From Candidatus Thorarchaeota archaeon (GTDB taxonomy: Archaea; Asgardarchaeota; Thorarchaeia; Thorarchaeales; Thorarchaeaceae), in contig JAGSHN010000025.1 of assembly GCA_029855935.1 (NCBI GenBank), positions 62,001-126,000 on the forward strand: DNA of 64,000 nucleotides, in the 5' to 3' direction. Numbering within the stretch: position 1 is the first letter of the stretch; each line of letters starts with the position of its first letter. The notes below the pieces were generated by a model, which saw nothing but the letters and a program-made list of their open reading frames with translations, made no database searches and had not been told where the DNA came from. The translations under genes were made by a program, and so were the position numbers. This document shows, one piece after another, positions 32,057 to 51,390 of this stretch.

Positions 32057-32677
32057 TCAGTAGTCGATCAGGACCTCAGCAATCTCCTTCAGTGAGTCGG
32101 AGATGTGCTCCATCTCACTCACGATCTTTCTCATTATGTAGCAGACGAAGGTGGAGTCACCGCCCGTGGCCACTGAGACCTGTCGACAGATGACAATATT
32201 GTCCTCGTCTATCTCACGCTCCAGACGCATCACCGCCTGGTACGACTCGGTGGCCGACTCTGGGTCCTCTACAGTCGAGGCGAGTGCAGTTCCGAGGGCC
32301 TTGAACTGAGAGTTGACCTTTGATGCGATGGCCGACAGGGAGTCCATATACACCTCTTGGAACGAACCGCCCCGAATCATGTCTATCATCACAACAACCA
32401 GAGAGAACGAGTACTCGATACGCAGCAGATGACTGATGACAGAGAGGACCAGCACTCCTGTCTCGTCCTGAGGTAGCCTGTCACTGAACGCGTAGCGAGA
32501 TACAAGGTCCTTGAGGCGGTCAAGAATCCTCTCGCGTTTGTCCGACCACTCTGGATCCTCGACTCCGCACTCACGGCAGAGCTTTGCACTGACCACCTCA
32601 CTAATGTCACTGAGCTGTGAAACTATGTCTGACAGGTAGGAGAGAATCTCCGTTCGTGCAAGGTCCCGGGTTGTCAC
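32057..32677 (-). CDS. PhoU-like helical protein
   Basis: A 206-residue all-helical protein. The C-terminal part, DEDNIVICRQVSVATGGDST, followed by FVCYIMRKIVSEMEHISDSL and KEIAEVLIDY, matches PhoU-type four-helix units in which E-x-x-x-D motifs bind metal. Near the N-terminus a CRECG motif could add a metal site. PhoU-like proteins often sit next to ion transporters and regulate them. Its GTG start overlaps the end of the amphi-Trp gene by four bases (GTGA), and the antiporter follows at once, so the three are one operon. Confidence 0.75.
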   Translation of the reverse strand: MTTRDLARTEILSYLSDIVSQLSDISEVVSAKLCRECGVEDPEWSDKRERILDRLKDLVSRYAFSDRLPQDETGVLVLSVISHLLRIEYSFSLVVVMIDMIRGGSFQEVYMDSLSAIASKVNSQFKALGTALASTVEDPESATESYQAVMRLEREIDEDNIVICRQVSVATGGDSTFVCYIMRKIVSEMEHISDSLKEIAEVLIDY

Positions 32678-32931
32678 TCCTCTGTCACCTCCTCACGCGG
32701 CCGCGACCACGAGAGATCTATTCGTAGGTGGATGAATTGCCTCCTGAAGCTGACCTCGATGCCCGTCTCAACGGGCTCTCCCAGGGGGAGCGCGATGGTA
32801 CCTTCTTTCATGCTCGGCATCGGCAGTTCGAGAACGTCACCGTTCCGGAGTTGCTCTGCGATTGCCGCGAAGAGTTCGCTCAGGCTGAGGAGGGTCTTCT
32901 CCTCTTCAAACTCATAGTCGTCGATTCGCAT
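32674..32931 (-). CDS. amphi-Trp domain protein (intact copy)
   Basis: An 85-residue protein with the amphi-Trp layout: YEFEEEKTLLSLSELFAAIA, EQLRNGDVLELPM, then three beta strands ending in LRIDLSWSRPREE. In this family the final strand carries an amphipathic W. It heads the operon with the PhoU-like and antiporter genes and is divergent from TrpRS. A second, frameshifted copy lies at 35877-36120 and shares over half its bases, so this is the working copy. The molecular role of the domain is unknown. Confidence 0.8.
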   Translation of the reverse strand: MRIDDYEFEEEKTLLSLSELFAAIAEQLRNGDVLELPMPSMKEGTIALPLGEPVETGIEVSFRRQFIHLRIDLSWSRPREEVTEE

Positions 32932-33180
32932 CTGCTACACCTCTGGGAGCTAAGACTCCTACATAGGACTCTCTGGACCCTTTTATGCGTGACTGCGGCG
33001 ATACCTGAGCCTGTCCCACCATACGATTGGGTCGAGCGGCGACCGAGAGAGACGAGGTCATCGACCCGGTCTTGGATGTCTGTTGGCACTTCACCAAGAT
33101 CTCCCGCGCTGATTTGACCACCATCCTTAATTGTGATACCACGGGGAGCAGACAAGACTCCTCACGTGCATCGTGAATCG

Positions 33181-33188
33181 CCAAGGAG
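33181..33188 (+). promoter_or_regulatory. Shine-Dalgarno deciding trpS start
   Basis: CAAGGAGT about nine bases before ATG 33200 favours this start over GTG 33173, which would add nine residues. Confidence 0.6.
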
Positions 33189-33199
33189 TTGATACCGAG

Positions 33200-34345
33200 A
33201 TGAATGAAGAAGATGAGATGGTTGTGACCCCCTGGGAGGTCAGGGGAAGGATTGACTATGACCGACTCATCAAGGAGTTCGGCACTCAGCACATCACAGA
33301 GGAGCTGAGAGCAAGAATCCGGGCTATTACTGGTGAGGACCACTTCTTGCTCAGGAGAGAGCTGGTCTATTCGCACAGAGATCTCGACTGGATACTGGAC
33401 AAGTACGAGAGCGGCGAGAAGTTCGTCCTGTACACTGGGAGAGGCCCCAGCGGTCACACGCATCTGGGCCATCTTGTACCTTGGCGATTCACAAAGTGGC
33501 TTCAGGACCACTTTGAAACACGGTTGTACTTTCAGATGACGAATGATGAGAAATTCCTGTTCAACCAAGACATATCGATAGAAGATGTTCACAGATACAC
33601 GTACGATAACACGCTAGACCTCCTCGCACTGGGCTTCGAGCCGGAGAACACCTACATCATTGACGACATCAGGCACATCGACCTGATGTATGAGATAGGC
33701 ATCCGTGTGGCCAAGAAGGTCACATTCTCCACTGCGCGTGCCGTGTACGGTTTTGACAACAGTATGAACATCGGCGCCATCTGGTACACCGCTCTTCAGG
33801 CGGTCCCAGCATTCCTCCACTCCGAGATCTATGGGGTCAAGACCCCGTGCCTGATCCCGTGTGCCATCGACCAAGATCCGTACTGGCGAGTGGCCAGGGA
33901 CGTTGCAGAGAGGCTTGGATATTACAAGCCCGCCTCCATCCAGAACAAGTTCGTACCAGGGCTGGCGGAGGGCGGCAAGATGTCGGCCTCGGACCCCGAC
34001 TCTGCTATCTTCACCATCGACACGCCCAAGGAGGCGAGACGAAAGGTGATGAATGCCTTTACTGGAGGGCGCACATCTGCGAGAGAGCAGAGGGAACTCG
34101 GGGGAAATCCGGATGTCTGTTCCGTGTTCCTCTACTACAAGTTCGTCTTCATGCCCGATGACAAGGATCTGGCCGACATCGAGCAGAAGTGCCGGGGCGG
34201 TGAGATACTCTGCGGGGAGTGCAAGCAGATACTTGCGGGAATGGTGGAGGAGTTCCTAGAGCGACATCAGATGGCTCGCGAGGAGGTCAAGGACCGCGTG
34301 GAGGAATTCTCTGCTGCACGGCTGAGAGAGGAGAAGAGGCGCTGA
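33200..34345 (+). CDS. trpS: Tryptophanyl-tRNA synthetase, archaeal/eukaryotic type
   Basis: A 381-residue class I synthetase that charges tRNA-Trp. The HIGH-like motif is GRGPSGHTHLGHLVPW (about residue 85) and the KMSKS-like motif is GGKMSASDPDSAIFT. GFDNSMNIGAIWYTALQAVP and PCAIDQDPYWRVARDVAERL are typical of the archaeal/eukaryotic TrpRS clade. Length and motifs are normal. It is the complete copy in a duplicated block; its 3' half recurs as a decayed copy at 36269-36906. It is divergent from the amphi-Trp gene. Confidence 0.95.
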   Translation: MNEEDEMVVTPWEVRGRIDYDRLIKEFGTQHITEELRARIRAITGEDHFLLRRELVYSHRDLDWILDKYESGEKFVLYTGRGPSGHTHLGHLVPWRFTKWLQDHFETRLYFQMTNDEKFLFNQDISIEDVHRYTYDNTLDLLALGFEPENTYIIDDIRHIDLMYEIGIRVAKKVTFSTARAVYGFDNSMNIGAIWYTALQAVPAFLHSEIYGVKTPCLIPCAIDQDPYWRVARDVAERLGYYKPASIQNKFVPGLAEGGKMSASDPDSAIFTIDTPKEARRKVMNAFTGGRTSAREQRELGGNPDVCSVFLYYKFVFMPDDKDLADIEQKCRGGEILCGECKQILAGMVEEFLERHQMAREEVKDRVEEFSAARLREEKRR

Positions 34346-34647
34346 CACGGCAATGGCGCCAGAGGTTGCTCGCGGGACACACGGAACATCCTATGCGGCC
34401 GGACAGGTCGTCAACCGAAGAAGTAAAGTCATCACGGGACTCGGGACTGCTGCGTGTGCTGACAATCGGAATCGGTCAGACCAACTCCGTCATTGGTCAT
34501 ATTGATGCCAATCCGATCTCGCTCAACTTCGTCGGGTCGCCCCGGGTCATTTTGTCCACCATCATCGTGGTGATACCGCTGGACACGACCCATCTAGTCT
34601 TGCAGAGCGGGCAGGGGTATCTTGGAGAAAAAATCAGAATTGACCAA
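34346..34647. other. 302-bp stretch after trpS
   Basis: It contains the nitrilase remnant (about 34456-34620) and no other recognised feature. Confidence 0.55.
34456..34620 (+). pseudogene. Remnant of a nitrilase-family gene start
   Basis: Just after trpS, the bases around 34459-34530 encode LTIGIGQTNSVIGHIDANPI, which lines up with VRIGIGQMSPVIGDTRSNLK at the start of the intact nitrilase at 37017. The bases also match (AATCGGAATCGG, then GTCATTGG in both). Beyond about 34530 the similarity fades and no catalytic Cys segment follows. It is best read as the ruined first-copy nitrilase of the duplicated block. Confidence 0.65.
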
Positions 34648-35607
34648 CTACATTCGCACTCCATAGACACAACGTTCGTTCTTGCTGTTTGCTAGAAGCC
34701 ATTTCACGCCCACAATCTGATAGGCATCCTTGAGGATCTCGATGGTTCTGCTGACAAGAGCCTTCTTACCTGTCTCTGACTTGTAGATCAGTTTTGACGT
34801 CATCAGCAAATGTCCGTTCTCCCTCAGCAGGTCACTAGCACGAACCATTGTCTCTGCGCTCTCTCTTGGATCCCGATTCATGTCACACACTATCATATCA
34901 AATGGTGCATATCGCCCCAGTTCATCAATGACGCTCTCAAATTTGGCGCGGATATGAACGATGTTTGGTGCCTCAATCTGGAGATTTGCAGGATCAACTG
35001 CAATGACTTTGGCAGTACGACCGCAGAGATATTGTGACCAACCTCCGGGTGCAGCTCCAATATCCAGTACATTCCAAGTCTTCGACACTGGAATGTTGAA
35101 TCTCTGAATTGCCTCCTCAATCTTGTAATATGCTCCACATACAGGCTCGAACGTCTTCGCTTTTTTTCTGAAAAAGAATTCGCGGGGAAAAATGCCATAG
35201 TAATAGACATCTTGAATCTGCAATACATACAGCACTGTAGTAAAATGAGTTGGGGAGAGTTCAACGTGTTCTTCCAGCATTGCCAACAGCTGGTCTTGTA
35301 GAGCCCTTGGATGACCTTGGACCCTCAACACCATGGTCTCGTCCTTATCAATGAAGCCATCTTGAGCGACACTGGAGAAAAAGGATGGAAGTTCAGTTGA
35401 TGTAGCATTGGCAAGGAATACCCTGTTAACATAGCGCGATGGATATGTGTTTTCAATAGCCTTCAGGAATTCGATGCCCTCTTCCTGAGAAATGGAAGTT
35501 CTCACAAACCGTTCCATATGTTCAAATTGGTAGGGATAGATTTCACACAAATAGGTCGAGAGCCTTCTCGATACATCGGACTCTATGAAGACATCAATAG
35601 TGCCCAT
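34648..35607 (-). CDS. FtsJ/RrmJ-type SAM-dependent RNA methyltransferase
   Basis: A 319-residue protein. The C-terminal domain (about 165-319) is a Rossmann methyltransferase of the FtsJ/RlmE/RlmM type: TWNVLDIGAAPGGWSQYLCG is motif I, KVIAVDPANL motif II, DMIVCDMNRDPRESAETM motif IV and GHLLMTSKLIYKSE motif VI, with the catalytic K-D-K-E residues plausible. The N-terminal 160 residues may be an RNA-binding domain. It probably 2'-O-methylates RNA. It is clearly more AT-rich than its neighbours and lies between the two copies of a duplicated block, suggesting separate arrival. A TATA-like CTTTTAAACA lies at about 35628-35637. Confidence 0.85.
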   Translation of the reverse strand: MGTIDVFIESDVSRRLSTYLCEIYPYQFEHMERFVRTSISQEEGIEFLKAIENTYPSRYVNRVFLANATSTELPSFFSSVAQDGFIDKDETMVLRVQGHPRALQDQLLAMLEEHVELSPTHFTTVLYVLQIQDVYYYGIFPREFFFRKKAKTFEPVCGAYYKIEEAIQRFNIPVSKTWNVLDIGAAPGGWSQYLCGRTAKVIAVDPANLQIEAPNIVHIRAKFESVIDELGRYAPFDMIVCDMNRDPRESAETMVRASDLLRENGHLLMTSKLIYKSETGKKALVSRTIEILKDAYQIVGVKWLLANSKNERCVYGVRM

Positions 35608-35876
35608 AACGGAGGCAACCGCCTAACTTGTTTAAAAGTCGTTTTAGATATGGGAGTCGTGAGCGGGCCACGAACAGCAAACTTGTCTGCCAATACAAGT
35701 GGGGAGGCCAAGACTATTGATGGCGACATAGAAGTTACTGAATTACCGGAAAAAACTGCGGAGGCTCGAGATACTCCCACGTGACCAAAGCGATTACTGA
35801 TTGATTCACTGTGTGCCACGCGGACGGGGGTATTCTGGGCCCTACTATCTCTAACAGATTGGGTCAGGTATGTGAT
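35608..35876. other. 269-bp AT-richer spacer
   Basis: It holds the FtsJ gene's TATA box. An open frame of 44 codons starts at 35648 (plus) but has no recognisable product or ribosome site, so it is not called. Confidence 0.45.
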
Positions 35877-36120
35877 CTACGGGGTCTCGCGCGGCCGCGA
35901 CCATGAGAGGTCTATTCGCAGACGAGTGAACTGTCTTCTGGGGCTGACCTCGATGCCCTCAACGGGCTCTTCTGGGGGGAGCACGATATTGCCCTCCTTC
36001 TTACTCGGCATCGGCAGTTCGGGCCAATTGCCCTGACGAAGGTGTTCTGCGGTTGCCGCGAGGAGTTCACTGACTGAGGAGAGTCTTTTCCTCTTCAAAC
36101 TCATAGTCGCCTATTCGCAT
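35877..36120 (-). pseudogene. amphi-Trp domain gene, frameshifted duplicate
   Basis: This is a second copy of the gene at 32674-32931. It begins with the same codons (MRIGDYEFEEEKTLL), but two bases are lost just after, where the first copy reads CTCAGCCTGAGC, and the frame hits a stop. Read in the shifted frame the similarity resumes (VSELLAATAEHLRQG to LRIDLSWSRPRE). The flanking bases (GCGTGACTGCGGCG, near 36175-36188 here and 32985-32998 there) are also shared. Confidence 0.85.
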
Positions 36121-36268
36121 CCGCTGCACCTCTGGGAGATATGACTTCAACATAGCACTCCGTGGCCCCTTCTATGCGTGACTGCGGCGCAGACCGACGT
36201 ATCTCACGATATTGTTCAGTCTGGTAGCGAGCAGGAGAGATGATGCCTCTGGTAGAGTTGCAGCCGAC

Positions 36269-36906
36269 GTGTCGCGAAAAAGGTGACACTCTCCACTGCG
36301 CGTGCCGTGTACGGTTTTGACAATAGTATGAACATCGGCGCCATCTGGTACACCGCCCTTCAGACGCTCCCGGCGTTCCTCCATTCCGAGAACTACGGGG
36401 TCAAGACCCCGTGCCTGATTCCGTGCGCCATCGACCAAGACCCCCATTGGCGAGTCGCGAAAGACGTGGCGGAGAAGCTAGGCTACTATGGGCCCGGATC
36501 GATTCAGAACAAGTTCGTCCCCCGTCTTGCAGAGGGCGGAAAGATGGCGGCGTCTGACCCGATGTTGGCTATCTTCACTGTGGACTCCCCAAAGATGGCC
36601 AAAAACGAAGTGATGAACGCCTTCAGGGGTGGCCGTACGTCGGCAAAGGAGCAGCGGGAGCTTGGTGGCAGTCCGGACATCGCTTCGGTGTTCATGTACT
36701 ACAAGTTCGTCTCTATGCCCGACGACAGGGACCTTCAGCACATAGAACAGAAATACCGCGGCGGAGAGATACTCTGCGGCGAGTGCAAGCAGATACTCGT
36801 TCTATGGTGGCCAATCTTCTCGAGAGAAATCAGGCTGCCAGAGAGGAGGCAAAGGAGAGTCGACGAGTTCTCCGCCTCACATCTGAGAGATGAGATCAGA
36901 CGATAG
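36269..36906 (+). pseudogene. Truncated tryptophanyl-tRNA synthetase duplicate
   Basis: From about 36269 to the stop at 36904-36906 the sequence is a close copy of the 3' 55 percent of trpS (TLSTARAVYGFDNSMNIGAI onward). The N-terminal half with the HIGH-like motif is missing; upstream bases fit the amphi-Trp side of the block, so about 0.6 kb was deleted. The KMSAS motif has become KMAAS, and near the end a compensated frameshift replaces AGMVEEFLERHQ with a foreign stretch. It cannot be a working synthetase. Confidence 0.88.
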
Positions 36907-37016
36907 TGGATACTCCCGCCCGGTGCCTAGACGCTGAGCGATGAGCGTCATTCTGCTTGCCCCCGACCAACAAAGGTATAGGGCCGTGTTTGCGCACCAC
37001 GGCAGGGAGATGAGAC

Positions 37017-37811
37017 TTGGTACGAATCGGAATCGGCCAGATGTCTCCAGTCATTGGCGACACGAGGTCGAATCTCAAGATACTTGATCGGTTGCTCTAT
37101 GAGGCTGAGAGGGCCGAGGTGAACGTCCTAGTCCTACCAGAGCTCGCCAACTCGGGATACGCATTCGAGACTGGCGAGGAGGCTGCAGCAAGTGCCGAGG
37201 TCATACCAGAGGGGCCGTTCTCCAGTAGGCTTGCTGACTGGTCCAGCCGCGGGCTTGTGATCTCCGGGATCTGCGAGACCGATGGGGATGATCTGTACAA
37301 CTCCGCTGCTGTGTTCGCAGATGGTGACTACATTGTGACGTATAGGAAGGTCCATCTCTTCAACAGGGAGAAGCTGTTCTTCAAGCCAGGAGACAAGGAA
37401 CCACCTGTCATCGAATACGGAGGACACAGGTACGGCCTGATGATATGCTGGGACTGGGTGTTCCCAGAGATGGCGAGAATACTGGCATTGAAGGGCGCGC
37501 AGGTGATTCTTCATCCTGCCAATCTCGTTCTACCGTACTGCCACAGGGCGATGGTCACAAGGTCCATTGAGAACGGAGTCTTCACGGTCACCGCAAACCG
37601 AACGGGAACGGAGAGAGGCCTCAAGTTCTACGGGGAGTCGCAGGTCGTCTCACCGCGTGGTGAGGTCTTGCTCAAGATGAGCGGTGATGAAACAGCTGTC
37701 AGATGGGTCGATGTCAATCCGGCAGACGCAGACGACAAGATGCTGACTGAGAGGAATCATCTGCTCAGAGACCGCAGGCCCGCGATATACAGACGTCTTG
37801 TAGAAGAGTGA
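37017..37811 (+). CDS. Carbon-nitrogen hydrolase (nitrilase family)
   Basis: A 264-residue complete nitrilase-superfamily amidase. The Glu-Lys-Cys triad lies in VLVLPELANSGY (Glu near 42), VTYRKVHLFNREKLFF (Lys near 109) and GLMICWDWVFPEMARILALK (Cys near 142), with WD in place of the common YD. It probably hydrolyses a small amide; the substrate is unknown. The start is TTG 37017 with GGGAGA seven bases before; no in-frame ATG is available upstream. It is the intact copy of a gene whose start is also found in ruined form after trpS. Confidence 0.88.
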   Translation: MVRIGIGQMSPVIGDTRSNLKILDRLLYEAERAEVNVLVLPELANSGYAFETGEEAAASAEVIPEGPFSSRLADWSSRGLVISGICETDGDDLYNSAAVFADGDYIVTYRKVHLFNREKLFFKPGDKEPPVIEYGGHRYGLMICWDWVFPEMARILALKGAQVILHPANLVLPYCHRAMVTRSIENGVFTVTANRTGTERGLKFYGESQVVSPRGEVLLKMSGDETAVRWVDVNPADADDKMLTERNHLLRDRRPAIYRRLVEE

Positions 37812-43703: not shown

Positions 43704-45554
43704 TTAAGTCTGAGTGCCACAGGCGTCCTCCTTGGGCACCAGTCCCTCTTGGATAAGCCACTCCCGCAGGGCACGCGCGGCCGCGGGTGTCATACCAGGC
43801 GTGTCGGCAAGGTCCTCGACAGAGGCCGTGCAGACAGCGTCCAAGCTGCCGAACTTGCGAAGAAGAGCAGCGCGTCGTTTCGGACCTATACCGGGAGCGT
43901 CCTCCAGAATCGAGCCTGTGAGGACTCGCTGACGGAGAGTGTGATAGTAGCGCTGAGCGAATCGGTGTGCCTCATCACGGACCCTCTGAATCAGTCTCAG
44001 GGCGGGTGATTCTGCCGGGAGGACTATCCCACCAGGCTGGTCCCGCGTGAACAGAATCTCCTCTCTCTTGGCAATGGACACGACAGGAAGGTAGTCTAGT
44101 CCTACGGAGGTAAGTGCCGAGAGAGCAGAGGAGAGCTGACCCTTGCCGCCATCAATCACAATGAGGTCTGGTAACGCCTCTCCAGCCTCAAGTACACTGC
44201 GATATCGTCTCCTGACGACCTCCCTCATCATCGCATAGTCGTCGGGTGTTTCCTTGGACCGAATCCTGAACATCCTGTATGACGTCTTGTCTGGAGCACC
44301 GTTGCGGAATACGACACACGAGCCAGCGGGAGTCGTCCCCTGAATGTTTGCTATGTCAAAGCCCTCTATGTGAAGTGGCGCCCTGTTCAGGCCCAGAACC
44401 TCGCGCAACTGCTTGACCCCCTCGTCCACGACCGGAGCCTTGCTGTCACCGAGAATGAGGATCTTATGAAGAGCCTGTACAGCGTTTGTGTTCGCCATCT
44501 CAATCAGGTCGAGGTCAGGACCAGTGTCAGGAGTCAGAAGGCGCATCCCGTGTGAACGTCCGTCTGAGAAGAGGTTCTCTAGCAGCTCGCGCTCCTCAAT
44601 GTCGATTGGGAGTAGTACCTCCTCAGGAAGCCGTGGTAGAGAGGAATAGTACTGTTTCACGAACGTTGTCAACAGCTCAGAATCGGTCACATCAAGGCCG
44701 ACATCGAACAGAAAGCTGTCCGTGCCTATCAAGCGGCCTCCACGGATAGTGAGGAGCTCTATCAGTGCCGCCTCCTCGGTGCGGGCAATGCCCACAATGT
44801 CCCGGTCGCGTCCCTCGATGTCGAAGACGCGTTGATGCCTAAGCAGTCGGACAATGTCGTCGATCCTGTCACGGAGCACTGCAGCCCTCTCGAACTCCAG
44901 ACGCGATGCAGCCTCCTCCATCTCTCCACGCAGTATCGAGAGAAGCTGTTCCTCTCGCCCCTCCAGAAAGAGAATCATCTCGTCGACCAGCCGGCGGTAC
45001 TCGTCCACACTAATGTGGCCGCGGCAGGGTCCGGCGCAGCGGCCGATGTGGAAGTCGATACACTCCCGTTGCTGAGAGGCCGGGTCACGACACATTGCAA
45101 CAGGGATGTAGCGGCGGAGGGTGTCGAGTGTCTTCTCCAATCGACGAATCGAGCCATATGGACCAAAGAACAGAGCGCCATCCGCGCCCTCAGTCTCGCG
45201 GGTAGCCACAAACGACGGTATGGGCGCCTTCGTGTCCACGCGGACCCAGACGTGACGCCTGTCGTCCTTCAGGGCGATGTTGTACTTGGGCTGATGCCTC
45301 TTGATGAGCGTGGCCTCCAGAATTAGCGCCTCTCGCTCGGTCGACGTGACTATCGTCTCCAGATCACGTGCCTCTGCCATCAGCTCCTGCATCCTTGCGT
45401 CCAGCCCGCGAGTCCGGAGGTACGAGGACACCCTCTTGCGCAGTGACTTGGCCTTCCCGACGTAGAGGACCTTGCCAGTTTCGCTCTTCCAGAGGTAGAC
45501 ACCAGGACGATCAGGAAGGTCCCTTACAAGGCGAGTGATGTCAGAGCCTGTCAC
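43704..45554 (-). CDS. uvrC: UvrABC excinuclease subunit C
   Basis: A 616-residue nuclease that makes both incisions in nucleotide excision repair. The GIY-YIG domain is at the start (RPGVYLWKSETGKVLYVGKA, then KSLRKRVSSYL). A UVR motif for UvrB binding lies at about 205-235 (LEFERAAVLRDRIDDIVRLL). Four Cys at about 155-180 (CRDPASQQRECIDFHIGRCA) form the metal cluster seen in many UvrC proteins. The RNase H-like part holds IEGFDIANIQGTTPAGSCVV and LIVIDGGKGQLSSALSALTS. Two HhH units end the protein (LEDAPGIGPKRRAALLRKFG). GTG start overlaps the uvrA stop by four bases. Confidence 0.96.
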   Translation of the reverse strand: MTGSDITRLVRDLPDRPGVYLWKSETGKVLYVGKAKSLRKRVSSYLRTRGLDARMQELMAEARDLETIVTSTEREALILEATLIKRHQPKYNIALKDDRRHVWVRVDTKAPIPSFVATRETEGADGALFFGPYGSIRRLEKTLDTLRRYIPVAMCRDPASQQRECIDFHIGRCAGPCRGHISVDEYRRLVDEMILFLEGREEQLLSILRGEMEEAASRLEFERAAVLRDRIDDIVRLLRHQRVFDIEGRDRDIVGIARTEEAALIELLTIRGGRLIGTDSFLFDVGLDVTDSELLTTFVKQYYSSLPRLPEEVLLPIDIEERELLENLFSDGRSHGMRLLTPDTGPDLDLIEMANTNAVQALHKILILGDSKAPVVDEGVKQLREVLGLNRAPLHIEGFDIANIQGTTPAGSCVVFRNGAPDKTSYRMFRIRSKETPDDYAMMREVVRRRYRSVLEAGEALPDLIVIDGGKGQLSSALSALTSVGLDYLPVVSIAKREEILFTRDQPGGIVLPAESPALRLIQRVRDEAHRFAQRYYHTLRQRVLTGSILEDAPGIGPKRRAALLRKFGSLDAVCTASVEDLADTPGMTPAAARALREWLIQEGLVPKEDACGTQT

Positions 45555-48421
45555 GTTGAGATCACCTCCCCCTCTGACCGAGCCCGAGGACTGTTCTCAA
45601 GTGCCTCTCGGAGAAAACGGCCAGTATGTGATCGACTCATTCGGGCAATGTCCTCGGGGGTGCCAATCGCCACGACCTCACCGCCCTCCTCGCCGCCCTC
45701 GGGGCCAAGGTCGATCACCCAGTCAGCAGTCTTGATGACCTCGATGTTGTGCTCGATGACGACCACGGTGTTGCCCCTTTCCACAAGGCGATTCAGGACC
45801 TTGAGCAGGACGTGAACATCCGAGGCCGACAGGCCCGTGGTCGGCTCGTCGAGGATGTAGAGCGTACGACCTTGCCCTCCGCGAGAGAGCTCGGCGGCGA
45901 GCTTCACGCGTTGAGCCTCACCTCCGGAGAGCGTTGTTGCAGGCTGGCCAAGCGTCAGATATCCAAGGCCCACATCAACGAGGGTTTGGAGCCTCCGTGC
46001 CACAGATGGTATGTCGCGGAAGAAGGCCAGTGCCTCGTCGATTGTCATGTCGAGGACCTCGGTGATGTTCTTGCCCTTGTAGGTCACCTCAAGGGTCTCC
46101 CTGTCGAACCGGCGGCCCTTGCACACGTCACAGGTGATGTGAACATCACTCATGAAGTGCATCTCGATGGTGAGAACACCACTGCCCTTGCACTTCTCGC
46201 ATCTCCCCTCACGGGTATTGAAACTGAACCGACCAGGGCCGAAGCCACGGACGCGGGCCTCTGGCGTCGCTGCAAAGAGCCTACGAATGTCATCGAAGAC
46301 CTTAGTATACGTGGCAGGATTCGACCGTGGAGTTCTACCTATGGGCGACTGATCCACCATCACAACGCGGTCTATGCGCTCCCAGCCTTCAATCGAGTCG
46401 TGGGCGCCCGGAATCACCGCCGCACGGTTGACAAGGCGCGCGAGAGCCTTGTAGAGAGTCTCATAGACAAGGGTGCTCTTTCCGCTGCCTGAAACACCCG
46501 TCACACATACAAGGAGACCGATCGGTATCTCCACAGTGATGTTCTTGAGATTGAACTGTCTTGCACCGCGCAGGACTATCTTCTCGCCATTGCCGCTCCT
46601 GCGCACGGTGGGAATGGGGATTCGACGCTCCCCTGCCAGATACTGGGCAGTGAGCGAACGTGGATGGGAGAGCACCTCCGATGGCGGCCCCTGAGCCACA
46701 ATCTCGCCACCGTGGATCCCCGCGCCAGGCCCGAGGTCGATGATATGGTCGGCCGCCATCACGGTGTCCCTGTCATGCTCTATGACAATCACCGTGTTGC
46801 CCAGCTCACGTAGTCGATAGAATGTTTCAATGAGGCGCCGGATGTCACGCGGATGAAGACCGACAGAGGGCTCATCGAGGCAATACAGGACCCCGGTCAG
46901 TGCAGAGCCAATCTGCGTGGCCAGACGTATTCTCTGGCTCTCGCCACCTGAGAGTGTCATCGACCTCCTGTCGAGAGTCAGATATCCGAGGCCAACGGAC
47001 TCGATGAATCTCAGTCGAGCGAGTATCTCCTTCAGAACGAGATGCGCTATCTTTCTCTCCCGGTCAGTGAGCTTGAGGCTCTCGAAGTGACGGAGCGCCT
47101 CTCGGATGGTCATCGAGGAGACCTCATCAATCGACTTGCCGCCCACGGTCACAGCCAGGCTCTCAAGACGAAGCTTTCGGCCACCGCAGGTGGGGCACGT
47201 CGTCGCGCTGGCGAACTTGCTCACTATCTTCTCGCGGTACCATTCAGCACTCGTGTCGCGCATATGACGACGGAGCCTTGGGACCATCCCCTCCCAAGTC
47301 CGCGTAACACGAACGGTCTCCCTACCACCTCTTCGTCCCACTGACTCGTACTCGAAGCTCACAGTGTAGCGGGGTCGGCCCCAGAGAATGACGTCCTTCG
47401 CCCTCTGAGGTAGGTCACGCCACGGCACATCCAGCGAGAAGCCAGCCTCTCTGCTCAGCGCCTCAAGGAAGCGCATAGGCCACGACTTGGGATTGCTGCT
47501 CCACGGTCGGAGAGCCCCCTCCCGGAGCGTCAGCGACTCGTCGGGAACTATCAGACGCGGGTCAATGTCGAACCTGACGCCCAAGCCATTGCAGTCCGGA
47601 CACGCGCCCTGTGGAGTGTTGTATGAGAACGCCTTGGGACCAAGATGTTCGTACTGAGCCCCACATCTAGGACAGATCATCTCCTCGCCGAAGACGAGGT
47701 CATCGTGTCCAGGCCGCACGACTATCGCGCGTCCGTTACCAGTCTCGAGCGCAGTCTCAAGAGATGATATGAGCCGCTCCCAGTTCCTCTCGCTGATCTC
47801 CAGACGGTCGACGACCACATCGATGTCATGGCGTCGCCGACCATCAAGTCGGATGCTCTCGATTGGAGTGACCTCTCCATCGACCCTGACACGGACGAAA
47901 CCATTCTCCAGCAGCCCCTGCAGCACCTCCGAGTGCGTACCCCTCTCGCCCCTGACAACGGGCGCAAGGACAAGGGCCCTCTCGCCGCCATTCTCCTTGA
48001 TCAGGAGCCGTGCTGCCGACTCAGGAGTGAGCTGCTGCATCTCCGTCCCGCACTTGACACAGTGAGGGATACCTATCGTGGCATAGAGGAGGCGAAGATA
48101 GTCGTGAATCTCAGTGCTGGTGGCGACTGTACTTCGAGGATTCTTGCTCCGTCCCTTCTGCTCGATGGATATCGCCGGTGGTATGCCCGTTATCTTCTCG
48201 ACACGAGGACGCTCCAGTCGGCCGAGAAAACGTCGGGCGTATGATGAGAGCGACTCGACGTACCTCCGTTGTCCCTCCGCGAAGATCGTGTCAAAGACAA
48301 GGGTGGACTTGCCCGAGCCAGAGGGACCCGTCACAACAACGAGTCTGTTGCGTGGAATGTCAAGCGTAACGGACTTGAGGTTGTGTTCTGATGCTCCCTC
48401 AATATGAATGACTCCGGTCAC
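45551..48421 (-). CDS. uvrA: UvrA, first paralogue (uvrC-proximal)
   Basis: A full-length 956-residue UvrA, the ATPase that finds DNA damage. The N-terminal Walker A is [20 protein letters not shown], the C-terminal one [20 protein letters not shown]. Both signature motifs read TLSGGE. The UvrB-binding region ([20 protein letters not shown] onward) and both zinc modules (CPRCGAQ...[16 protein letters not shown]...CDVCKGRR) are intact. It overlaps the upstream uvrA paralogue by four bases and uvrC by four. It looks fully competent by itself. Confidence 0.95.
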
Positions 48422-51390
48422 TCCTCCATCCCCCCTCTCTGACCGTCAATCTCCAAGACTCGCCTGAGAAACTGCCCCGTGTATGAGGCCGGGTTGTTCG
48501 CCACCTCCTCGGGAGTCCCCTCTGTAACGAGATACCCGCCCTCGTCACCGCCCTCTGGGCCCAGGTCGATTATCCAGTCGGCTGTCTTGATGACATCGAG
48601 ATTGTGCTCGATGACAAGGACCGTGTTTCCAAGGTCGACCAGACGATGGAGGACCTCGAGCAGTTTCTTCACGTCGGCGAAGTGAAGACCCGTTGTGGGC
48701 TCGTCGAGCAGAATTAGAGTCTGACCAGTGACAGGACGTGACAGGAATTTGCTGAGCTTGATTCTCTGTGCCTCGCCGCCGGACAGTGTCGTTGCCGGCT
48801 GGCCGAGCTTGACATAGCCCATTCCGACATCGACAAGTGTCTGAAGCCGCCGTCGAATTGGAGGGATGTCCTTGAAGAACTCGAGGGCCTCATCAATGCG
48901 CATCTCAAGGACGTCGGCGATGTTCTTTCCCTTATACCGCACTTGGAGCGTCTCACGATTATACCTCCGTCCCTTGCACTCCCCACAGGTCACCTGTACG
49001 GGTGGGAGAAACTGCATCTCTACAATCTCGACACCAGCACCCCGGCACTTCTCGCAGCGCCCGCCGCGCACATTGAAGCTGAATCGTCCCGGCTTGTAGC
49101 CTCTGATCTGCGCCTCCGGAAGGCTGGCGAAGAGCTGTCGGAGGGGTGTCCACAGGCCCACGTAGGTGGCTGGATTGGAACGAGGGGTGCGGCCGATGGG
49201 ACTCTGATCGATGACGATCACCTTGTCAAGCTGTTCCACGCCTATGATCTCATCGTGATCTCCTGGCGGGGACTCCGCACCGTGAAACCGCCTCGCCAGG
49301 GCCCTCTGCAGCGTCTCCACTATCAGACTGGACTTTCCGCTCCCTGAGACACCAGTGACACAGACGAAGAGGCCGAGTGGGATACGCACGTCGATGTTCT
49401 TGAGATTGTGATGTCGCGCACCTCGAATCTCTATGAAACGACCGTTCGGCTGCCGTCGTCTTCGTGGCACAGGAATCCGTTCCTCGCCCCGCAGGTAGCG
49501 GGCGGTGATGGAGTCGGGGCACTTCAGCACCTCGTCCAAGGTACCGGCAACCACCACCTTACCACCTTCTGCTCCCGCACCCGGCCCGAGGTCGACGACA
49601 TAGTCCGCTGAGCGGATTGTCGCCTCGTCGTGTTCCACGACAATGACTGTGTTGCCCAGATCGCGAAGACGCTTGAGAGCATTCAGCAGTCGCTGGTTAT
49701 CTCTTGCGTGCAGTCCAATGGAGGGCTCATCGCAGACATAGGTCACACCGACAAGGTTCGAGCCAATCTGGCTCGCCAGCCTGATCCTCTGAGCCTCACC
49801 CCCTGCGAGTGTGGGGGCAGACCTGTCCAAGGTGAGATAGTCGAGACCGACTGCACGGAGGAATTCGATGCGTCCCATTATCTCCCGAAGAATTGGCTCG
49901 GCCACTGGCTCCAGCCCGGCAGGTATCGTCGCAGAGCTGAGAAACTCATGGAGCTCGCGGACTGACATCCGGTTCAGCTCCACTATGGACTTGCCATTGA
50001 ACAGTACGGCCCGGGACTCTGGTCGAAGACGCGTACCGCCACACTCCGGACACGGATGCATCACCATGAAGCGCTCCAGCTTCCGCTTGACATACTCGGA
50101 GTCCGTCCGACGATAGTTGCGTCGCATCTTCGGGATGACGCCCTCCCATCGTCGTCGGGTGGTGCCCTCGACCACCATTGTGGCGGCACTGTTTCCCCAC
50201 CTCCAGTCAAGCTCGAACTCGTCGTCCGAACCGTACAGTACCACGCGCCGCTGTTCCTCTGTCAGATCACGCCAAGGTGTATGAAGAGAGAAACCGTGTC
50301 TCTCAGCCACCTTTCTGAGCAGAGGACTCCGACGGAGCCACCTGTACACCCCTATGGCGCCCTCGGAGATTGAGAGATTCGGGTTCACTACCACAAGCTC
50401 CGGATCAAAGTCAGGAATCGTCCCCAGTCCCGTGCATGTAGGGCAGGCACCGTGAGGTGTGTTCCACGAGAACAGCCTTGGCTCCAACTCTGGAAGACTG
50501 ATTCCACAGGTCGCACAGGCAAACTTCTCCGACAGTATCTGTTCTCCTCGCTCTGAGATTATCACGACAACACCGTCAGCCATCTTGAGGCTGGTCTCCA
50601 CAGCCTCGGACAGACGAGAACGATTGTTGGATGAGACACGGACCCTATCAACGACGACCTCAATTGTGTGCTCGTAGTATCGGTCGAGTGACATCCCCGG
50701 CTCAATCTCTCTCATCTCACCGTCGACGCGGACCCGGCTGAACCCCTTCCTCAGCAGCTCCTCGAACTCCCGTCGATACTCACCCTTCCTCCCGCGGACA
50801 ATCGGAGCAAGTATGCTAATGCGCTGACCATCCAGCGTCCTCAGAATGTGATCCACAATCTGCTGAGCAGTCTGGGGATGTATCTCCCTCCCGCACTTGG
50901 GGCAGTGAGGTGTTCCCACACGAGCATAGAGCAGCCTCAGAAAGTCGTAGATCTCGGTGATAGTGCCTACAGTACTGCGAGGATTGCGCCCTGCGCTCTT
51001 CTGGTCAATTGATATCGAGGGCGACAGGCCTGATATGTATTCGACTCGTGGCTTCTCCAACATACCCAAGAACTGTCTGGCATACGCTGAGAGCGACTCG
51101 AGGAACCTTCGCTGTCCCTCTGCATAGATTGTGTCGAAGACGAGGCTCGACTTGCCCGATCCTGACACCCCAGTCACGACGGTGAGCTTGTTGCGAGGTA
51201 TATCGATATCTATCTGTTTCAGCTTGTGTTCGTAGGCGCCAACCACCGAGATGACGCGTGGGCCTTCCTCGGTCTTGTCGCGGCCCGGCTCTGTCACAAT
51301 GTCCGAAACAGGCTCCGTCAAATCAGTACTTCCTCGAGTTTCGCCCATCAACCTCACCGGGAGTGTCCTGTTGCCTCTGGTCGAGCCCAT
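48418..51390 (-). CDS. uvrA: UvrA, second paralogue (uvrB-proximal)
   Basis: A full-length 990-residue UvrA paralogue. Walker A loops are [20 protein letters not shown] and [20 protein letters not shown]. The N-terminal signature is TLAGGEAQRIRLASQIGSNL, with Ala for the usual Ser of LSGGE, while the C-terminal one is [17 protein letters not shown]. The UvrB-binding region (ILAPIVRGRKGEYRREFEEL) and both zinc modules (CATCGIS...CPTCTGLG; CEKCRGAG...CGECKGRR) are present, so it is not a UvrA2 of the type lacking the UvrB-binding domain. An N-terminal extension of about 45 polar residues precedes the ATPase; a Met at 51348 could shorten it. It follows uvrB by 133 bases. Confidence 0.93.
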   Translation of the reverse strand: MGSTRGNRTLPVRLMGETRGSTDLTEPVSDIVTEPGRDKTEEGPRVISVVGAYEHKLKQIDIDIPRNKLTVVTGVSGSGKSSLVFDTIYAEGQRRFLESLSAYARQFLGMLEKPRVEYISGLSPSISIDQKSAGRNPRSTVGTITEIYDFLRLLYARVGTPHCPKCGREIHPQTAQQIVDHILRTLDGQRISILAPIVRGRKGEYRREFEELLRKGFSRVRVDGEMREIEPGMSLDRYYEHTIEVVVDRVRVSSNNRSRLSEAVETSLKMADGVVVIISERGEQILSEKFACATCGISLPELEPRLFSWNTPHGACPTCTGLGTIPDFDPELVVVNPNLSISEGAIGVYRWLRRSPLLRKVAERHGFSLHTPWRDLTEEQRRVVLYGSDDEFELDWRWGNSAATMVVEGTTRRRWEGVIPKMRRNYRRTDSEYVKRKLERFMVMHPCPECGGTRLRPESRAVLFNGKSIVELNRMSVRELHEFLSSATIPAGLEPVAEPILREIMGRIEFLRAVGLDYLTLDRSAPTLAGGEAQRIRLASQIGSNLVGVTYVCDEPSIGLHARDNQRLLNALKRLRDLGNTVIVVEHDEATIRSADYVVDLGPGAGAEGGKVVVAGTLDEVLKCPDSITARYLRGEERIPVPRRRRQPNGRFIEIRGARHHNLKNIDVRIPLGLFVCVTGVSGSGKSSLIVETLQRALARRFHGAESPPGDHDEIIGVEQLDKVIVIDQSPIGRTPRSNPATYVGLWTPLRQLFASLPEAQIRGYKPGRFSFNVRGGRCEKCRGAGVEIVEMQFLPPVQVTCGECKGRRYNRETLQVRYKGKNIADVLEMRIDEALEFFKDIPPIRRRLQTLVDVGMGYVKLGQPATTLSGGEAQRIKLSKFLSRPVTGQTLILLDEPTTGLHFADVKKLLEVLHRLVDLGNTVLVIEHNLDVIKTADWIIDLGPEGGDEGGYLVTEGTPEEVANNPASYTGQFLRRVLEIDGQRGGMEE

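What the first reader, a model, noticed from the sequence alone, without database searches (positions are those of the whole stretch)
32674..37811. Duplicated amphi-Trp / TrpRS / nitrilase block with reciprocal gene loss
The order amphi-Trp (minus), TrpRS (plus), nitrilase (plus) occurs twice. In copy 1 amphi-Trp (32674-32931) and TrpRS (33200-34345) are whole and the nitrilase is a remnant (about 34456-34620). In copy 2 amphi-Trp is frameshifted (35877-36120), TrpRS has lost its 5' half (36269-36906) and the nitrilase is whole (37017-37811). So each gene survives once but in a different copy. It is a textbook-like snapshot of complementary loss after tandem duplication, and it splits a once contiguous neighbourhood.
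Basis: partly seen in the sequence, partly recalled or inferred. Interest (0 to 1): 0.8.

Follow-up and report, generated by a model that had tools for sequence, protein, structure and literature searches.

The report
Patchwork gene duplication with foreign junction
A Thorarchaeota (Asgard archaeon) chromosome carries a second, decaying copy of a two-and-a-bit-gene block separated from the working copy by foreign DNA that includes a broken end of a bridge-RNA transposon; it looks like a scar of DNA import and recombination rather than a textbook case of each copy losing different genes.

Summary
The repeat is real. amphi-Trp/TrpRS (32692-33055, 33704-34341) recurs at 35886-36243 and 36268-36902 at 77% identity. 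Congeners G001 and G002 have one uninterrupted PhoU-amphi-TrpRS-nitrilase block; only this genome among 59 has a second TrpRS.

"Reciprocal loss" is not what the sequence shows. Copy 2 carries all the demonstrable decay: amphi-Trp is frameshifted, and TrpRS lost its promoter, start, codons 1-168 and the HIGH motif. The copy-1 nitrilase stub is about 60-75 nt (to about 34523), not to 34620, and stops at foreign DNA; a whole second nitrilase is not shown.

The junction holds an orphan FtsJ-like methyltransferase gene (44% GC, 34648-35607) and, unnoticed before, a truncated 5' end of an IS110 element (34525-34601, minus). A covariance model of bridge-RNA-like regions from relatives hits it at E=5.5e-11; this genome has no IS110 transposase.

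The copies are mosaic: sisters left of about 33870 but no closer than different species right of it, with unrelated TrpRS-nitrilase spacers. Best reading: congeneric DNA recombined into the locus, duplicating the left part around an imported right end, after which copy 2 decayed. The event itself is inferred; older duplication with gene conversion, and misassembly, remain possible.

The parts
32674..32931 (-). amphi-Trp-like protein gene, copy 1, intact (85 aa)
   Evidence: ORF; weak TIGR04354 match, E 0.0017, below curated cut-off; orthologue at the same place in G001, G002, G003; only intact copy in the genome
33200..34345 (+). TrpRS copy 1, intact and the only complete TrpRS in the genome; its 3' part from about 33870 belongs to a different allele lineage than copy 2
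   Evidence: NF008927 523.6 bits, above cut-off; genome search; mosaic analysis
34448..34523 (+). nitrilase 5' stub (about 20-25 codons, LTIGIGQTNSVIGHIDAN...)
   Evidence: 64% to G001 nitrilase start over 76 nt; 34464-34496 vs 37025-37057 above 1000 shuffles
34525..34601 (-). truncated 5' noncoding end of an IS110-family element: 5' part of a bridge-RNA-like structure (whole first hairpin, cut inside the second)
   Evidence: 83-85% to regions just upstream of IS110 transposase sequences in G012, 78-81% in G002; covariance model hit 46.3 bits, E 5.5e-11, only hit in own genome
34648..35607 (-). foreign FtsJ-like methyltransferase gene, intact 319 aa, 44-48% GC against about 55% around it
   Evidence: Pfam FtsJ 56.8 bits; no orthologue in 58 relatives, one 37-38% homologue in 228 genomes of the phylum; composition
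35608..35885 (.). remainder of the junction segment, origin unknown
   Evidence: no second copy in own genome
35886..36120 (-). amphi-Trp copy 2, decayed: 2-nt frameshift deletion, 3-nt deletion, missing last codons
   Evidence: alignments
36121..36267 (.). copy-2 amphi/TrpRS intergenic region; ends in the deletion that removed the equivalent of 33056-33703 (TrpRS promoter, start, codons 1-168)
   Evidence: homology stops at 36243 and resumes at 36268; 76% to copy 1, z 19.7
36268..36906 (+). TrpRS copy 2 pseudogene (3' half only)
   Evidence: 77% to copy 1; two compensating frameshifts, KMSAS changed to KMAAS; private changes 27 nonsynonymous to 9 synonymous
37017..37811 (+). intact nitrilase (264 aa)
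   Evidence: CN_hydrolase 144.6 bits; groups with G001 nitrilase, support 95

Best explanation
This is a recombination scar, not a plain tandem duplication with complementary loss. Shown: the ancestor had one PhoU-amphi-TrpRS-nitrilase block; the left part (amphi to about TrpRS codon 222) was duplicated in this lineage; the right parts of the two copies are different alleles, as far apart as species of the genus; foreign DNA (FtsJ-like gene plus a broken IS110 bridge-RNA end) sits exactly at the junction; copy 2 is a pseudogene. Inferred mechanism: DNA from a congeneric donor carrying the TrpRS 3' end and a nitrilase start cut by an IS110/FtsJ segment entered the cell. One end recombined by homology inside TrpRS near 33870; the other end joined at or near the amphi 3' end of a sister chromosome. 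That duplicates the stretch left of the crossover around the imported segment, gives copy 1 a hybrid TrpRS followed by a nitrilase stub, and leaves copy 2 with the native right end and the intact nitrilase. Copy 2 TrpRS and amphi, now redundant, then lost promoter, start and reading frame, while the nitrilase stayed because it was the only whole one.
For: Single-copy contiguous block in G001 and G002; second TrpRS in none of the other 58 genomes. Left part sisters: the amphi region rejects alternatives (AU p <= 0.001), and the copies share an intergenic stretch absent from congeners. Right part: third-position identity 41/52 left against 62/126 right, Fisher p 2.4e-4, breakpoint after 33874 with permutation p 0.0024, controls with congeners mostly flat; 33861-34045 disfavours copy sisterhood (AU p 0.019). 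Copy 1 there shares PKEARR with G001, copy 2 keeps the PKMAK type of G002. amphi-TrpRS spacers 76% identical (z 19.7) but TrpRS-nitrilase spacers unrelated (z -2.0). Foreign segment at the junction: FtsJ-like gene and IS110 end. Decay of copy 2 looks neutral: private changes 13/11/12 over codon positions. Precedent: transformation yields tandem duplications by interchromatid integration (PMC3784515).
Against: The donor has not been found; the copy-1 right part is not especially close to any known congener. Segment 34046-34345 weakly favours copy sisterhood again, so the mosaic may have more than one tract. Copy 2 is unusually close to G003 at third positions in 33861-34028 (35/56, p 0.03), which could mean that copy 2, not copy 1, holds an imported tract. 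Segments are short and third positions near saturation.
Confidence: 0.45

Rival explanations
1. Ordinary tandem duplication whose right end fell inside the nitrilase, older than the split from G001, with later gene conversion making the left parts look young; the FtsJ/IS110 segment arrived at the junction separately; copy 2 then decayed.
For: Right-part divergence is at least that of the G000-G001 split; copies diverged largely as functional genes (codon-position identities 0.89/0.90/0.57).
Against: G001 and G002 show no trace of a second copy; needs an extra conversion and a separate insertion exactly at the junction.
Confidence: 0.27
2. One reading: all three genes duplicated whole, then complementary loss, with the copy-1 nitrilase destroyed by an IS110 insertion and deletion.
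For: IS110 end lies directly against the nitrilase stub; intact genes are indeed split between copies.
Against: No nitrilase sequence beyond about codon 25 in copy 1; the spacer is not similar to the native one as a same-age duplicate should be; the missing part coincides with the junction.
Confidence: 0.16
3. Assembly artefact: contigs of two related strains joined at this locus.
For: The genome is a draft of 32 contigs with 2.8% contamination; reads were not available.
Against: Copy 2 is decayed while the contig continues with a nitrilase that groups with G001; the segment between copies is unique and not a shared overlap.
Confidence: 0.08
4. Copy-2 TrpRS fragment is a working truncated protein with a new role.
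For: Frame open over 207 codons.
Against: Two frameshifts inside, no HIGH motif, promoter region deleted, neutral substitution pattern; an open frame after 36-75 neutral changes has probability 0.33-0.11 by simulation, so it needs no selection.
Confidence: 0.04

Closest known systems
Merodiploids formed by transformation through alternative pairing and interchromatid integration (Johnston et al. 2013, PMC3784515)
   Same: Imported DNA partly homologous to the chromosome produces a tandem duplication; an essential gene survives in one copy
   Different: There 100-900 kb and recent, in pneumococcus; here about 1.8 kb, old, in an archaeon, and only inferred from sequence
Homology-facilitated illegitimate recombination (e.g. 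PMC3240628)
   Same: One homologous and one non-homologous end when foreign DNA is integrated
   Different: Here a duplication is involved as well; process not demonstrated in Thorarchaeota
IS110-group elements with a bridge RNA in the left end (Durrant et al. 2024, PMC11208160)
   Same: Noncoding structured region just upstream of a DEDD transposase, two hairpins with internal loops, in relatives of this genome; a fragment remains here
   Different: In the window only the first hairpin and part of the second remain, with no transposase; target and donor pairing not tested

Membership tests
Tandem duplication followed by complementary (reciprocal) gene loss | Single-copy contiguous ancestor | tested here: met
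   G001 and G002
Tandem duplication followed by complementary (reciprocal) gene loss | Each lost gene was once complete in the copy that lost it | tested here: inconclusive
   Copy-2 amphi yes apart from its last codons; copy-2 TrpRS deletion is internal; copy-1 nitrilase is only a stub ending at foreign DNA
Tandem duplication followed by complementary (reciprocal) gene loss | Both copies share one divergence age along their length | tested here: not met
   Breakpoint after 33874, permutation p 0.0024; spacers 76% against no similarity
IS110-family element (remnant) | DEDD transposase (PF01548/PF02371) | tested here: not met
   None at this spot or in the own genome; present beside the homologous region in G012, G003 and, broken, G002. 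Hence only a remnant of an end, not an element
IS110-family element (remnant) | Conserved structured noncoding end next to the transposase | tested here: met
   Covariance model from 7 upstream regions, 17 of 35 pairs with changes on both sides; window hit E 5.5e-11
Bridge RNA | Loops complementary to target and donor DNA | not tested
   Element ends and empty sites were not mapped; hence 'bridge-RNA-like'
FtsJ-like 2'-O-methyltransferase (RFM fold) | FtsJ domain | tested here: met
   PF01728 56.8 bits against cut-off 24.1
RlmE (rrmJ) orthologue | NCBIfam equivalog cut-off | tested here: not met
   TIGR00438 41.6 bits against 300

The most novel reading that the evidence does not exclude
The IS110 element itself, through its bridge RNA, joined the foreign FtsJ segment to the nitrilase and so made a bridge-RNA-driven duplication and gene fusion between species of an Asgard archaeon, leaving a hybrid, essential TrpRS.
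Probability: 0.07. Interest if true: 0.7.

Novelty: new member of a known kind. Interest (0 to 1): 0.4.

Why it matters
It shows in one place how an archaeal neighbourhood is broken: imported DNA, a mobile-element end and a redundant copy of an essential tRNA synthetase. It is a caution that 'reciprocal loss' may be read into what is really a chimeric junction. It also gives a covariance model for bridge-RNA-like regions of IS110 elements in Thorarchaeota, for which Rfam 15 had no match at gathering threshold in seven loci.

Tried and rejected
Reading 34512-34620 as nitrilase: no sense-strand similarity. A protein-coding reading of 34497-34670 minus (57 aa, Cys pair): its only relative turned out to be the IS110 noncoding end. 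Viral origin of the FtsJ-like gene: no relative in IMG/VR; one 30% plasmid match. Simple single-crossover integration of a circle: predicts even divergence between copies, not seen. Neutral decay of copy 2 from the moment of divergence: not compatible with the codon-position pattern 0.89/0.90/0.57. The first alignment against G001 used wrong coordinates (third row) and was redone. The first TrpRS tree over the whole shared part mixed two histories (support 83) and was replaced by segment tests. Rfam at E <= 1 on the locus: nothing.

Full report
Setting. The window lies in contig 15 of a 2.97-Mb, 97% complete draft genome. Its nearest relatives are named Candidatus Thorarchaeota; the closest congener G001 corresponds to isolate B65_G9, contig QMYR01000049.

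Observation. Two stretches repeat: 32692-33055 with 35886-36243 and 33704-34341 with 36268-36902, both 77% identical. Copy 1 has whole amphi-Trp-like and TrpRS genes. Copy 2 amphi has a 3-nt and a 2-nt deletion and lacks its last codons. Copy 2 TrpRS lacks codons 1-168, together with the promoter region conserved among congeners, and carries two compensating frameshifts near 36800. The nitrilase at 37017-37811 is whole. Copy-1 TrpRS is the only complete TrpRS, the nitrilase the only close homologue and amphi the only intact copy in the genome.

Ancestral state. In G001 the order CPA antiporter - PhoU - amphi - TrpRS - nitrilase - MazG is contiguous, and in G002 the order is the same through the nitrilase in the retrieved stretch; G003 agrees up to its contig end inside TrpRS. 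Outside the genus the nitrilase is not next to TrpRS in the genomes checked, while MazG matches were found in the nitrilase loci of many relatives. So TrpRS-nitrilase adjacency appears particular to this genus, and the window shows its secondary disruption.

The nitrilase stub. Similarity to the native nitrilase start is limited to 34464-34496, and to the G001 nitrilase to 34448-34523. Copy 1 therefore contains about 20-25 codons of nitrilase that stop at foreign DNA. A second whole nitrilase is possible but not evidenced.

What lies at the junction. 34526-34599 matches, at 85%, a sequence 82 nt upstream of an IS110-type transposase in G012, and similar places in G012 (second copy), G002 and G003. 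Seven such upstream regions fold into a shared structure of an outer stem and two hairpins with internal loops; 17 of 35 pairs show changes on both sides, no shuffle of 500 reaches this, and sliding the pairing destroys it. This resembles the bridge RNA that IS110-group elements carry in their left end (PMC11208160); loop-target pairing was not tested. A covariance model built without the window hits 34601 downward on the minus strand at 46.3 bits, E 5.5e-11, the only hit in the own genome. The fragment holds the first hairpin and is cut inside the second, where the nitrilase stub begins. The genome has no IS110 transposase. Beyond the element end comes an intact FtsJ-like gene (Pfam FtsJ), GC 44-48% against 55%, without an orthologue in the other relatives and with one 37-38% homologue in 228 genomes of the phylum. 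From inspection of the sequence, residues resembling the K-D-K-E catalytic set of this fold are present; this was not tested.

The copies are mosaic. In the amphi region and in TrpRS up to about 33870 the copies are each other's closest relatives (AU p <= 0.001 for alternatives in amphi) and share an intergenic stretch missing in congeners. To the right, third-position identity falls from 41/52 to 62/126 (p 2.4e-4; best breakpoint after 33874, permutation p 0.0024), while comparisons with congeners stay mostly flat. In 33861-34045 copy 1 shares derived residues (PKEARR) with G001 and copy 2 keeps the PKMAK type seen in G002 (AU p 0.019 against copy sisterhood). The amphi-TrpRS spacers are 76% identical (z 19.7); the TrpRS-nitrilase spacers are not alignable (z -2.0), and copy 1's is marginally like G001's (z 3.1). 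The far 3' part (34046-34345) is unresolved.

Timing. Over the shared TrpRS part identities by codon position are 0.89, 0.90 and 0.57, so the copies mostly diverged while functional. Changes private to copy 2 are 13/11/12 by position and 27 nonsynonymous to 9 synonymous, near the neutral expectation of 0.70/0.27: decay came late. An open 207-codon frame is not surprising after that few neutral changes.

Mechanism. One event can explain duplication, mosaic, stub and foreign DNA together: partly homologous donor DNA recombines at one end inside TrpRS and joins a sister chromosome at the other end near amphi. Interchromatid integration producing tandem duplications is documented for transformation in pneumococcus (PMC3784515). 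Shown here: anatomy, ancestry of the block, mosaic, decay. Inferred: donor, order of events, role of the IS110 end. Rivals are an older duplication with gene conversion and later insertion, full duplication with IS110-linked loss of the copy-1 nitrilase, and misassembly; each is kept with a stated probability.

Verdict. Moderately interesting as a dissected recombination scar with an orphan bridge-RNA-like fragment.

Noticed in passing
34525-34601 (minus); L208-L214: Family of IS110 elements in Thorarchaeota with a structured bridge-RNA-like region upstream of the transposase; no Rfam 15 match at gathering threshold. Model R1 also finds further copies in G014, G019 and G009.
   Followed up: partly
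34648-35607: FtsJ-like methyltransferase gene of patchy distribution; its one good homologue in the phylum (L159) lies just upstream of ORFs that look like ribosomal proteins S13 and S4 (my reading of the sequences).
   Followed up: partly
43704-51390: ORFs that look like bacterial-type uvrC (43704-45554) and two tandem, diverged uvrA genes (45551-48421, 48418-51390), by inspection; direct repeats between the two uvrA-like genes.
   Followed up: no
33128-33140 and 32960-32990: TATA-like motifs of TrpRS and amphi are conserved in congeners; in copy 2 the former is deleted and the latter carries a substitution (TTTTAT to TTCTAT).
   Followed up: no
32057-32677: The PhoU-like protein tree puts G000 outside the other three species of the genus (97), unlike nitrilase, which groups G000 with G001 (95): possible recombination between species or unresolved branching.
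   Followed up: no
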